From Seiridium cupressi (taxonomy: Eukaryota; Ascomycota; Sordariomycetes; Amphisphaeriales; Sporocadaceae): DNA of 64,000 nucleotides. A program made the position numbers and the translations under genes. The stretch is taken from contig JARVKI010000112.1 in assembly GCA_036674765.1 (NCBI GenBank), forward strand, positions 62,001 through 126,000, given 5' to 3'. Below are positions 59,767 to 62,864 of the stretch, in pieces; positions within the stretch are counted from its first letter, which is position 1; each line of letters begins with the position of its first letter. Below the pieces are notes generated by a model that had not been told where the DNA came from, did not search any database, and saw only the letters and a list, made by a program, of their open reading frames with translations.

Positions 59767-62700
59767 ATGGGCGATAGTCAGCCTTACGTGACCATTCGGT
59801 CGAGGAGGCTTACGGACGGCATGAGCATAGGGAGCAGTGGTGATTCTACCGTACGTGGAAGAGTGCAGTCTCGGGACGTTGCAGGTCTACTCACGTCTCA
59901 TCAGTATGGATCGAGCGCCGGTGATGATAAGATGCCGGCGGCAACGCACGACACCAGCCGTGTGAACTACCATGTCAAGCATATCTCCGACTTCGCGAAG
60001 ACGCTTGAAGATGTGGGTGTTCCATCCCTCGCGAGCTTTGGGGGGCCAAGGGAGCTGATGATATTGTCAGTCTGCTGCGCGCGCATTTCCGAATCGCGGT
60101 CGATCGCAGCGATACCAGAAAGTTCAAGCGCTTCTCCTACACTGGACATCCGATGATCTCTTCGTACTACCAGAACTACAGGACCTGGAACGTTGTTTCG
60201 TAGAGGATTACAGCTTTGATACTGACACCTTCTCCATACCGTCGGAAAACTCTCACCTAGAGCTGATGATGAGGATCGGACAAATGGTCAAACAACACGA
60301 GTCGACCGACACACTATTTGTCGTTTACTATGGTGGTCATGCGAGAATAGACGAGTCGAGGCAAAGCACCTGGTGCGCGTAAGTGAAGCAACAGTACGGT
60401 TTAATATGCGACCAAATCTAATAGCGTGCCAGAAACCGAAGCTCAGATTCGCCATGGCTCCAGTGTGTATATCCTTACTCGTGTATTCCGCTGTGCGCTT
60501 TGGATGCTAATACCTACTAGGTGGTCTGCAATTCAGACACTATTAGAACGCTCACTTTCCGATGTACTCATCCTCCTGGACTGCTGTGCTGGTGCTGCGA
60601 GTGCTACCTTTCCAAATGGTATGAGTATCACGGAGACCATTTCAGCAAGCAGCTGGGACGCCATTGCGCCGGATCCTGGAAGGTTCTCTTTCACGAGCGC
60701 ACTTATAGAAGTGCTGCAACAGTGGAAACATAGGACCTACTCAGCCGCCATGTTACATGCCGAGCTCCTGGCGCGGTTGAAGCATCCACGCCCGGTCATG
60801 TATAATGGCAGGAACTTCGAGGCTCGGTCCACGCCAGTCCATTTTATGATGACTTCGAATCATAGAGCCCCAAGCATCGAGGTGGCGCGGATATTCTCAG
60901 AAGACGAGACACCTCCCTCGCCCCCAGCAGAACTAGAGAATGAAACTCGAGCTATGACCGGCAGATCCGGAGTCCCTCAGGACATGATTGCGTCAGAGCC
61001 TAACGAGGACGTACCGCACGTCATGATATCCCTCGCATTAGAGGACAACCAGAGACTTGATGTTAACGCGTGGGAAAGTTGGCTGGCGTCGTTCCCAGCT
61101 ATTGCTAAATATGTCAAGGTACAAGGAGTGTTCAAGAGTCACTCGACGCTACTACTTCTATCACTGCCAGTCATGGTCTGGGACCTACTGCCCGACGATC
61201 TTGCCTGTAATTTTATTGCTTTCATCCGGTCAAATAATCTGGCATCCGACCACAAAGGCTTGGCTGCCCCTCAACAGGCTGCAGCAGTTCCGAGCGGGTC
61301 TGAAGAAGCCAGGTCAATTTTGTCCAGTGGCGGAGTGTCGACGCAGTCTCGTGTGCCTGACTCCATCCTGGCTACTGCGCAACCTTCTCTGGGGACCTCG
61401 ACGAAAAATTCCCGGCAATCGGGAATTTCCACGGGCACGATCGGCAGACGGACGACTGCTCCTATTTTGGAACACCCGGCCAGGACCTCTAATGAGAATA
61501 TAACACACCAGATGATAATAAACCAGTCCCGGAACTCAAGAAGGACGATATTGGAATCGGGTGATAACGTCCCCGTTCGACCGAATCTAGCCGCGCATGT
61601 ACAGACCCGTTTGGAAGCGTACTTCCAGGAGCATGCAGCGCCGACTGTTGCCATCACAGAGTTTCTGGCGTCTAACTTGGGTGTTGAGACCACTGATATT
61701 GATGTAAGATAAATGATTTCTACCTGCTTTGGTTGTTACTAATACTTTGACCAGCTGTGGTTCTCACATCGCCGCGAACAGCAGCTAGTAGAAAACAGGC
61801 TTCGAAGTCTACGGATAAATGACCATGAACACCAAGAATTCGAGAGAGAGGGTGCTCGGATGATCCTACCAGGGAATCTCAACAACTTGTTGGAAATTGT
61901 GCCGTTTGATCAAATCCTGCTCATCGATCTTCGCTCACCATCAGATCACGATCGGTCACACATACACGATTCGATCAACTTCAGAGCGCCGGCATCGTTT
62001 GTCCAGAGAGCACCATTCGAAATGATCGAGAAGACGTTGACAGATGAAGCTAGCCACGAAACTTTCAAAAAGTGTTACACCTGCAGATGCGTCGTTTTTT
62101 ATGATCGGCATATTGAGTACACGTGGGAATGTCCCACTGCCGAAGCCTTGATCCAGAAATTCAGGAGTAAAGGATGGTCGGGCCAAGGGTTCATATTGAA
62201 GGGTCACTACCGCGAATTTTCGGACTCATTTGACAAATACATCGGCGGTCACAGAATGACGAGCAGTGCTAGGAAATACTTGGAGAGTTTGCAAGAAAAC
62301 TCTCACCAAGAGATGGTACGCAAGACGAAACCTAATTATGACTTCGTATACGTGGCTGACCATATACTACAGGCGGACAACCAGAAAGAATATGACGACT
62401 GGCTAACTTTGTTGGCGAATGAGGATCGTGTCCCTTCTACGGCATTGGCACCTATAGTGAAGGAAGAGCGCGTCGAAGCCACATTACAGCATCAGAAGGA
62501 CCTCGAGGACGAGCTGGAAAGAAGGTTGCCTCCTCTGTATCGGAAAGCCCTCGACCTTAAACTGGACGATAATTGGGGAACCAAGGCCTCGATTGTCGAG
62601 CATCTGTCACGAGGTCTTGAGAAGATGCAACAGGCAGGAAGTGGCAGCGACGATACCGTGCAGCCCAATTACCCAGACAAGCTTCGACAGGACCGGTATA

Positions 62701-62864
62701 ATGCCGCGGATCCTGACTCCCTAGATCTAGACGAGGAGTCACGTTCGAAAGACGGTACGCACCACAAGACAGGTGCCAAGTCACCAGAGGAATCGTCCGG
62801 CTCAGGGCCCGACCCCAAAAAGGGACGAGGACGGATGTGGAAGGTTCTACGGAGCGGAAGGTGA
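59767..62864 (+). CDS. Caspase-like / homeodomain / rhodanese-like fusion protein
   Basis: The spliced product is 958 aa from five exons: 59767-60012, 60071-60378, 60433-60462, 60521-61703 and 61755-62864; introns are 58, 54, 58 and 51 bp. After an unrecognised N-terminus comes a caspase-like (peptidase C14, p20-type) domain at about 83-300. It has QKVQALLLHWTSDDL, the catalytic His172 in VVYYGGH and the catalytic Cys, most likely Cys217, in LILLDCCAGAAS. A Ser/Thr-rich linker leads to a homeodomain at about 544-603. Its Leu16, Phe20, Pro26, Trp48, Phe49 and Arg53 equivalents (L559, F563, P569, W591, F592, R596) have canonical spacing, but the Asn51 position is His594. A rhodanese-like domain follows at about 630-754 (ILLIDLRSPSDHDRSHIHDSINF), with YDR in the active-site loop where Cys is expected. 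The C-terminus is charged and low-complexity. Function is unknown; cell-death or stress signalling is only an inference from the caspase fold. Confidence 0.8.

What the first reader, a model, noticed from the sequence alone, without database searches (positions are those of the whole stretch)
59767..62864. A fungal caspase-like protease fused to a homeodomain and a rhodanese-like domain
Splicing the five exons gives one 958-aa frame carrying three domains that are rarely if ever found together. The caspase-like part has the paired His172 and Cys217 motifs of an active enzyme. The homeodomain matches canonical spacing: Leu16 to Phe20 is 4 and Phe20 to Trp48 is 28. The third domain has the rhodanese start motif (ILLIDLRSPSDH...HIHDSINF). 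I know of no described fungal system with this layout. One idea is that the protease releases or controls a DNA- or protein-binding module. This is the best candidate for an undescribed system in the window.
Basis: partly seen in the sequence, partly recalled or inferred. Interest (0 to 1): 0.87.

Follow-up and report, generated by a model that had tools for sequence, protein, structure and literature searches.

The report
Homeobox protein with built-in caspase-like protease
A gene known in several moulds as a developmental homeobox regulator turns out to carry an intact-looking caspase-type protease in its front half, kept unchanged in the relatives examined, so these proteins may work by cutting other proteins and not only by binding DNA.

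The parts
59767..62864 (+). Whole coding region, five exons (59767-60012, 60071-60378, 60433-60462, 60521-61703, 61755-62864), 958 aa; orthologue of MoHOX4/PAH7
   Evidence: Spliced; borders set by relatives that read across them; full-length homologues; tree
60119..60881 (+). Caspase-fold cysteine protease domain, residues 99-315 (introns inside)
60338..60340 (+). Codon of the catalytic His172 (GGHAR)
   Evidence: His in 148 of 148 orthologues, and in 63 of 63 modules with other tails
60585..60587 (+). Codon of the catalytic Cys217 (LLDCCAG, second Cys); Asp215 two residues before it
   Evidence: Cys in 147 of 148 with one gap; with other tails Cys 63 of 63 while the preceding residue varies (Thr 30, Cys 27, Ala 6), and Asp at Cys-2 in 62 of 63
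61002..61244 (+). 'PHV' domain (my name), residues 356-436: alpha/beta domain after the caspase fold
   Evidence: Mean column identity 0.85; BLAST match in 316 of 317 retrieved proteins; AF2 strands and helices at low to middling confidence, block pLDDT about 44-66
61245..61565 (+). Poorly conserved linker, residues 437-543, low model confidence in a relative; holds a patchily kept NQxR motif
   Evidence: Mean column identity 0.35 over 437-545; pLDDT under 50 over most of it in P0003; NQxR in 38 of 149 rows
61566..61796 (+). Homeodomain, residues 544-603, split by intron 61704-61754; position 51 is His
   Evidence: Pfam 30.3 bits, residues 550-598; model of P0003 matches engrailed 1enh, TM 0.90 by target, rmsd 1.3; position 51 in 148 orthologues: His 121, Asn 10, Arg 8, Gln 5, others or gap 4
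61878..62252 (+). Rhodanese-like domain, residues 631-755, of the kind found in MAPK and tyrosine phosphatases; Asp where a rhodanese has its catalytic Cys
   Evidence: Pfam 24.1 bits, residues 641-745; Foldseek rank 1 is the MKP5 MAP-kinase-binding domain, E 7.5e-5; sequence match to DUSP6; FYD Asp in 120 of 121

Best explanation
This is the Sordariomycete developmental regulator MoHOX4/PAH7, and it works first of all as a protease. SHOWN by sequence and predicted structure: an N-terminal caspase-fold domain with a His172/Cys217 dyad and acidic residues where the S1 side is expected (Asp215; Glu117 as candidate), joined to a conserved alpha/beta domain, a variable linker, a homeodomain and a rhodanese domain of the MKP/PTP type that looks non-catalytic. 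INFERRED: the homeodomain and the rhodanese domain are addressing parts that bring the protease to its partner (a DNA-bound complex, or a signalling protein docked on the rhodanese surface). The protease then cuts a partner, or its own linker, after a basic residue, and so switches a developmental programme: conidium size in two fungi, perithecium pattern in a third. Relatives with other tails (Ras-association, C2, TPR, C2H2, Zn2Cys6) would be the same cutter with other addresses. Estimated likelihood of this addressed-protease reading: 0.45.
For: Caspase fold. Dyad kept in 148/148 (His) and 147/148 with one gap (Cys) orthologues and in 63/63 modules with other tails, while two relatives in the same genome with DNA-binding-like parts have lost it (C19: His site SGY; C149: both sites), so the dyad can decay where it is not needed. 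Mean column identity: caspase 0.87, PHV 0.85, rhodanese 0.71, homeodomain 0.64, linker 0.35. Same protease module with RA, C2, TPR, C2H2, Zn2Cys6 and DUF3295 tails; in a midpoint-rooted tree the HOX4 rows form one clade, support 100/99. Asp at Cys-2 in 44/45 HOX4 rows (one gap) and 62/63 others; Asp462 of MALT1, Asp211 of TbMCA2 and Gln184 of caspases are named as S1 residues on loop L4 in PMC4357240 (passages); that all three stand at Cys-2 is recalled. Deletion phenotypes.
Against: No proteolytic activity, substrate or cleavage has been shown here or in the passages read. Pfam Peptidase_C14 does not match the window protein, a whole-genome search with that family did not list this locus, sequence searches of solved structures list no caspase (with 60 of 140 shown, 66, 81), and profile comparison with this genome's own metacaspase-like protein is not significant (hhalign probability 0.9%). 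NF047832 scores lower on the correct model (31.1) than on my first one (36.7). Fold does not show function. The homeodomain is kept in 46 of 46 members and the papers treat the gene as a transcription factor, with expression changes in the Magnaporthe mutant. The orthologue sets are the best-scoring hits only (120 listed of 375, 205 and 191), so decayed copies may be under-counted. Many other-tail proteins come from uncurated gene calls in unnamed assemblies.
Confidence: 0.45

Rival explanations
1. Self-releasing transcription factor: on a signal the caspase domain cuts the poorly ordered linker (437-543) and frees the homeodomain-rhodanese half to act on DNA.
For: Long low-confidence linker between protease and homeodomain; a basic NQxRxSRR-like stretch is kept in part of the family; the acidic residues near the S1 side would fit cutting after Arg; mutant expression changes.
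Against: The linker is among the least conserved parts (0.35) and the NQxR motif is found in only 38 of 149 rows; homeodomain position 51 is Asn in only 10 of 148; several modules with other tails have no DNA-binding part to release (RA, C2, TPR).
Confidence: 0.25
2. Ordinary homeobox transcription factor in which the caspase fold acts only as a folded or dimerising scaffold, as in pseudo-caspases.
For: The gene was found, named and deleted as a homeobox gene; two relatives in this genome have lost the dyad yet keep the region.
Against: His 148/148 and Cys 147/148 with one gap in the orthologues; a scaffold does not need an exact dyad and a nearly invariant Asp at Cys-2.
Confidence: 0.15
3. 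MAP-kinase-docked regulator: the rhodanese domain binds a MAP kinase as in MAPK phosphatases, and the kinase switches the protease or homeodomain.
For: Best structural match is the MAP-kinase-binding domain of MKP5; DUSP6 and DUSP16 by sequence; in this genome the one other match of this part at E<=1 is a rhodanese in front of a tyrosine phosphatase domain.
Against: The two adjacent Arg of DUSP6 that align to residues 673-674 (that they are the kinase-docking pair is recalled) are not kept: 673 is Gln 36, Glu 34, Ser 31, Arg 11, Thr 11, Ala 9, Lys 8, Leu 4 and 674 is Arg 60, Asn 31, His 16, Asp 8 among 149 rows.
Confidence: 0.15

Closest known systems
MoHOX4 (MGG_06285) / PAH7 / CsHOX4 homeobox proteins of Sordariomycetes
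   Same: Same orthologous group: full-length homology, 54% identity to MGG_06285 (P0095), same clade in the tree, same homeodomain and rhodanese; papers note homeobox plus rhodanese.
   Different: Nothing in the protein; what differs is the reading: the caspase-fold protease of the front half is not mentioned in the 12 papers found.
MALT1 paracaspase, caspases and metacaspases (clan CD, family C14)
   Same: Fold and order of elements, His and Cys after strands 3 and 4; Asp on the Cys loop as in MALT1 and TbMCA2.
   Different: 8-17% identity; no Peptidase_C14 match; extra PHV domain; fused to homeodomain and rhodanese; no significant profile match to this genome's own metacaspase-like protein.
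Bacterial EACC1-associated caspases (NCBIfam NF047832)
   Same: The NCBIfam caspase model that rings: 45 of 46 orthologues at E<=0.001; both are a constant caspase with a variable part downstream (PMC7159879, passages).
   Different: 31.1 bits against a cut-off of 140; EACC1 itself is a membrane-spanning domain in a separate gene, and no EACC1 was shown here.
Fungal tyrosine phosphatase with rhodanese (own genome C60) and MAPK phosphatases
   Same: Rhodanese part: 27% identity, E 3.8e-13, to C60, whose frame also carries Y_phosphatase; MKP5/DUSP6/DUSP16.
   Different: No phosphatase domain in Pfam; aligned Arg pair not kept.
Other-tail members of the same caspase+PHV module (e.g. P0205, P0246, P0274, P0275, P0240)
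   Same: Protease and PHV domain, 39-47% identity in the protease over the 68 rows, with the dyad.
   Different: RA, C2H2, Zn2Cys6, C2 or TPR tails in place of homeodomain and rhodanese.

Membership tests
Caspase-fold (clan CD / C14-like) protease | Caspase fold | tested here: met
Caspase-fold (clan CD / C14-like) protease | His and Cys dyad | tested here: met
   His172 148/148, Cys217 147/148 with one gap
Caspase-fold (clan CD / C14-like) protease | Pfam Peptidase_C14 over its curated cut-off | tested here: not met
   No match up to E=10 on the 958-aa model; 2 of 46 orthologues at E<=1; over the cut-off in some other-tail relatives such as P0213, P0275 and P0304
Aspartate-specific caspase (C14A) | Gln at Cys-2 in the S1 pocket | tested here: not met
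   Asp in the window, in 44/45 HOX4 rows (one gap) and 62/63 others
Metacaspase (C14B) | Sequence-profile kinship with a fungal metacaspase-like protein | tested here: inconclusive
   hhalign of A3 with the own-genome protein on C73 (Peptidase_C14 158.1 bits): probability 0.9%, E 0.064, 62 columns; Arabidopsis metacaspase 9 is at rank 24 of the Foldseek list
Any active protease | Peptide bond cleavage | not testable with these tools
   Needs purified protein
Homeodomain protein | Pfam Homeodomain over cut-off and three-helix fold | tested here: met
   30.3 bits over 22.9; engrailed 1enh TM 0.90 by target, rmsd 1.3; 46/46 members at E<=1
Canonical DNA-binding homeodomain | Asn at position 51 | tested here: not met
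   His in the window; His 121, Asn 10, Arg 8, Gln 5 of 148. That Asn51 is nearly invariant elsewhere is recalled; of five other homeodomain loci of this genome three (L013, L014, L016) show WFQN, the other two were not read
Rhodanese-like domain | Pfam Rhodanese over cut-off | tested here: met
   24.1 bits over 22.2
Catalytic rhodanese | Catalytic Cys after the fourth strand | tested here: not met
   Asp there in 120 of 121 rows; which column holds the Cys is recalled
MAPK-phosphatase-type docking domain | Adjacent basic pair of the kinase-docking motif | tested here: not met
   Residues 673-674: mostly Gln/Glu/Ser and Arg/Asn/His; that the DUSP6 pair is the docking motif is recalled
MoHOX4/PAH7 orthologous group | Full-length orthology and one clade | tested here: met
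   proteins named pah7 (P0115) and MGG_06285 (P0095) fall inside

The most novel reading that the evidence does not exclude
Filamentous ascomycetes own a family of proteases addressed by exchangeable tails, several of them DNA-binding (homeodomain, C2H2, Zn2Cys6). The 'homeobox gene' MoHOX4/PAH7 is its fixed Sordariomycete branch, and it controls development by cutting proteins at chromatin or at a signalling complex after Arg/Lys: a kind of protease-transcription-factor not described before.
Probability: 0.25. Interest if true: 0.88.

Novelty: new variant of a known kind. Interest (0 to 1): 0.66.

Why it matters
Three published studies deleted this gene as a homeobox transcription factor. If its most conserved part is an active protease, those phenotypes need re-reading, and a single Cys-to-Ala change decides. 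It would also show the caspase fold used as a developmental tool in fungi, outside cell death, in a family where one cutter is given many addresses. The protease is missed by Pfam in nearly all orthologues scanned (44 of 46), so it escapes routine annotation.

Tried and rejected
Gene models of 949 and 945 aa: rejected, as relatives read other splice borders. Searches were run with the 949-aa model; Pfam and NCBIfam were repeated on the 958-aa model: the same two Pfam families pass their cut-offs, and NF047832 stays below its own and falls from 36.7 to 31.1 bits. The counts use the 949-aa model; those use the 958-aa model.

PHV domain as EACC1: considered because NF047832 rings, dropped because EACC1 is a membrane domain in another gene. 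No fold is named for the PHV domain: it is only low to middling in the model, and the structure lists are filled by the caspase part; absence from those lists excludes nothing.

A sequence search of the PDB with the caspase part found one unrelated match at E 1.9, and the A2 profile one at E 0.13; only structure showed the caspases. On the full-length model of P0003 the best caspase had Foldseek E 1.3e-3.

Transcript proof from assembly-derived proteins: of the 14 such proteins among the 120 listed, 12 cross all four junctions without a gap, but their DNA and origin were not seen and the introns may be absent in those species, so I count it as weak.

A conserved self-cleavage site: not found; NQxR in 38 of 149 rows.

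Beta-lactamase tail (P0271) and the zinc-finger matches below cut-off (P0231, P0283, and P0213, which reads C2H2-like by eye only): not used as evidence, since read-through in uncurated contigs is possible. P0311 (661 aa, no rhodanese match) falls inside the HOX4 clade, likely a short gene model.

Papers, all seen by passages only: PMC3360767, PMC5666362, PMC2779367, PMC8406175, PMC3675110, PMC7159879, PMC4357240, PMC13304501, PMC13108354, PMC6480321, PMC11278219, PMC11433375, PMC8541488, PMC9104627, PMC12351640. The 12 papers that name pah7 (with homeobox and Podospora), MGG_06285, MoHOX4 or NCU00100 were all searched for 'caspase': 0 in 11, and 1 in PMC13108354, on cancer cells. Searches behind 'not in print': in open-licence full text only; supplements were not searchable.

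Full report
What was checked. The window is part of a 45.4-Mb genome (contig C112). The protein's closest relative is from Seiridium cupressi (912 of 921 aligned residues identical, with 83 residues of that record and 37 of the window's unaligned), so the window is Seiridium or very near (Sporocadaceae, Amphisphaeriales). I rebuilt the gene. Two first models (949 and 945 aa) proved wrong at introns 1-3 when compared with relatives; the corrected model has exons 59767-60012, 60071-60378, 60433-60462, 60521-61703 and 61755-62864, four GT-AG introns of 51-58 nt, 958 aa, His172 and Cys217 (places checked).

One gene or several. Exon 4 alone carries the caspase Cys, the rest of that domain, the next domain and homeodomain helices 1-2; exon 5 carries helix 3, the rhodanese domain and the tail. 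The fusion therefore depends on one short intron. Of 317 retrieved proteins, 150 match the window's caspase, PHV, homeodomain and rhodanese parts together, 92 lack only the rhodanese, 72 have caspase and PHV alone, 2 lack only the homeodomain, 1 has the caspase alone (BLAST E<=0.001); the retrieval favours proteins that share the caspase part and includes fragments. Of the 14 purely assembly-derived proteins among the 120 listed, 12 run across all four junctions without a gap, which fits spliced messages but does not prove it. No RNA reads were seen.

The homeodomain and the rhodanese domain. On the final model Pfam gives Homeodomain 30.3 bits (cut-off 22.9; residues 550-598) and Rhodanese 24.1 bits (cut-off 22.2; residues 641-745). 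All 46 aligned orthologues match both at E<=1. In the model of the Truncatella orthologue P0003 these two parts are the confident ones (homeodomain blocks 87-92, last block 77; rhodanese blocks 81-94); the best structural match of the whole model is the MAP-kinase-binding domain of MKP5 (E 7.5e-5), and engrailed matches the homeodomain at TM 0.90 by target length, rmsd 1.3. Two features are unusual. First, homeodomain position 51 (residue 594) is His in the window and His in 121, Asn in 10, Arg in 8, Gln in 5 of 148 full-length orthologues; the ten with Asn lie in scattered genera including the Podospora group. Coppin et al. noted a non-canonical His at their position 54 in PAH7 (PMC3360767, passage), which I take to be position 50. 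Second, the rhodanese domain has Asp where I recall the catalytic Cys to be (120 of 121), and the Arg pair of DUSP6 aligned to residues 673-674 is not kept. It looks like a binding domain, but MAP-kinase docking is not shown. In this genome its one other match at E<=1 is the rhodanese in front of a tyrosine phosphatase on contig C60.

The active site. His172 is kept in 148 of 148 orthologues and Cys217 in 147 with one gap. In modules with other tails His and Cys are kept in 63 of 63 rows (63 of the 68 listed were put into alignment A3), while the residue before the Cys is Thr in 30, Cys in 27 and Ala in 6, which marks Cys217, not Cys216, as the nucleophile. The residue two before the Cys is Asp in 44 of 45 HOX4 rows (one gap; these rows include fragments) and 62 of 63 others. 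In MALT1 and the metacaspase TbMCA2 Asp residues of this loop belong to the S1 pocket, where caspases have Gln (PMC4357240, passages; that all three stand at Cys-2 is recalled). A Glu in the first helix (Glu117 in the window) is kept in 45 of 45 HOX4 rows and in 55 of 63 others, the remaining 8 having a gap there; it may match Asp365 of MALT1. I infer cutting after Arg or Lys; this is a prediction.

Which part matters most. Mean column identity over 149 rows is 0.87 for the caspase domain, 0.85 for the PHV domain, 0.71 for rhodanese, 0.64 for homeodomain, 0.35 for the linker. The protease module, not the homeodomain, is the most constrained part.

The wider family. Searches with the core (205 hits, 120 listed) and with outgroup modules (191 hits, 120 listed) show the caspase+PHV module outside this orthologous group, in records named for Mollisia, Cadophora, Hyaloscypha and the like, for lichen-forming genera and for two Hypocreales (class and lifestyle of these are recalled). 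Other tails by Pfam, over cut-off: Ras-association (P0205 37.4 bits, P0250 42.8), C2 (P0275 36.8, P0304 30.7), C2H2 (P0246 36.2), Zn2Cys6 (P0274 33.2), TPR (P0240 30.9), DUF3295 (P0201 54.5). P0240 and P0274 come from unnamed assemblies. In 10 relatives scanned and 10, chosen by me for their tails, several show no named tail at all. In a midpoint-rooted tree of 58 cores the 28 HOX4 rows and P0311, a short record, form one clade (100/99); inside it three groups follow the fungal orders (order names recalled), two of them with weaker support (89/77 and 86/91) and the base unresolved, which fits an old, vertically inherited fusion in Sordariomycetes. The tree warns that long branches meet at the lichen rows. 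The window's genome has two more relatives with DNA-binding-like parts whose dyad is lost: C19 (SGY in place of GGH; C2H2-like fingers below cut-off) and C149 (both sites lost; N-terminal Cys-rich motif without a Pfam match). So the dyad decays elsewhere and is held in HOX4.

What is known. PAH7 is orthologous to MoHOX4 = MGG_06285 (PMC3360767, passage). Deletion changes perithecium distribution in Podospora, makes smaller conidia in Magnaporthe (PMC2779367, passages) and larger conidia with slower growth in Colletotrichum scovillei (PMC8406175, passages). The rhodanese domain of this class is in print (PMC5666362; PMC8406175). Twelve papers in the library name the gene; 'caspase' occurs 0 times in 11 of them and once in PMC13108354, about cancer cells. 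Full-text searches for homeobox+rhodanese+caspase+fungal and for caspase-like+homeodomain+ascomycete+domain architecture gave none; Peptidase C14+homeobox+fungi gave one wheat-resistance paper, and caspase+rhodanese+Neurospora four papers whose titles concern other subjects (listings only). A machine label 'Caspase domain-co...' stands on one short orthologue record (P0132), and one of the 120 orthologues listed bears a precomputed PF00656 (P0075). So the gene family is known; the protease seems unrecognised in the open-licence literature I could search, which leaves out most subscription journals and all supplements.

How it most likely works. The protease is the constant part and the tails change; the homeodomain has mostly given up Asn at position 51; the rhodanese looks like a non-catalytic binding domain. 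I therefore read the protein as a protease addressed by its tails, with cutting of a partner or of itself as the switch (0.45). Release of a transcription factor by self-cleavage (0.25), a scaffold without catalysis (0.15) and MAP-kinase docking as the main control (0.15) remain; these do not all exclude one another.

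Noticed in passing
45025-51432 (-): Separase: the part of the frame scanned (46000-51432) matches Peptidase_C50 at 197.8 bits. Another clan-CD cysteine protease (clan recalled) lies about 8 kb from the caspase-homeodomain gene, probably by chance.
   Followed up: partly
52478-53911 (-), 54782-56308 (+), 57668-58894 (+): Neighbours: SIR2-family protein (103.5 bits), cation efflux protein (130.9 bits), FGGY carbohydrate kinase (FGGY_C 70.2 bits); the last looks like a xylulokinase (recalled).
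   Followed up: partly
L011 (own genome C19:371115): Relative of the same module with the His site changed (SGY), the Cys site LLDACAF kept, and C2H2-like fingers downstream (18.5 bits, below the cut-off of 27).
   Followed up: partly
L009/L019 (own genome C149:34308-35053): Relative with both dyad residues lost (YYNGC, FDAVYHA), a PHV-like stretch and an N-terminal CxxCRRRRVxCHPNHH stretch; the two frames match no Pfam family at E<=0.01.
   Followed up: partly
L008 (own genome C26:129335-129994): Another caspase-like gene with the dyad kept (HYGGHGD, LILDCCYAA, read by eye), followed by what looks like a protein-kinase-like domain by eye.
   Followed up: no
P0001, P0002 (Seiridium records): Public gene models read through intron 3 and insert YILTRVFRCALWML between the His and Cys motifs; the orthologues compared lack it, so it looks like an annotation error.
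   Followed up: yes
residues 945-958 (62820-62861): The extreme C-terminus ends in a basic stretch with Arg955 kept in 130 of 149 rows; function unknown, perhaps a nuclear localisation signal.
   Followed up: no
61566-61796: Asn at homeodomain position 51 appears in scattered genera (Daldinia, Podospora group, others), which hints at repeated change at a site that I recall as nearly fixed in other homeodomains.
   Followed up: partly
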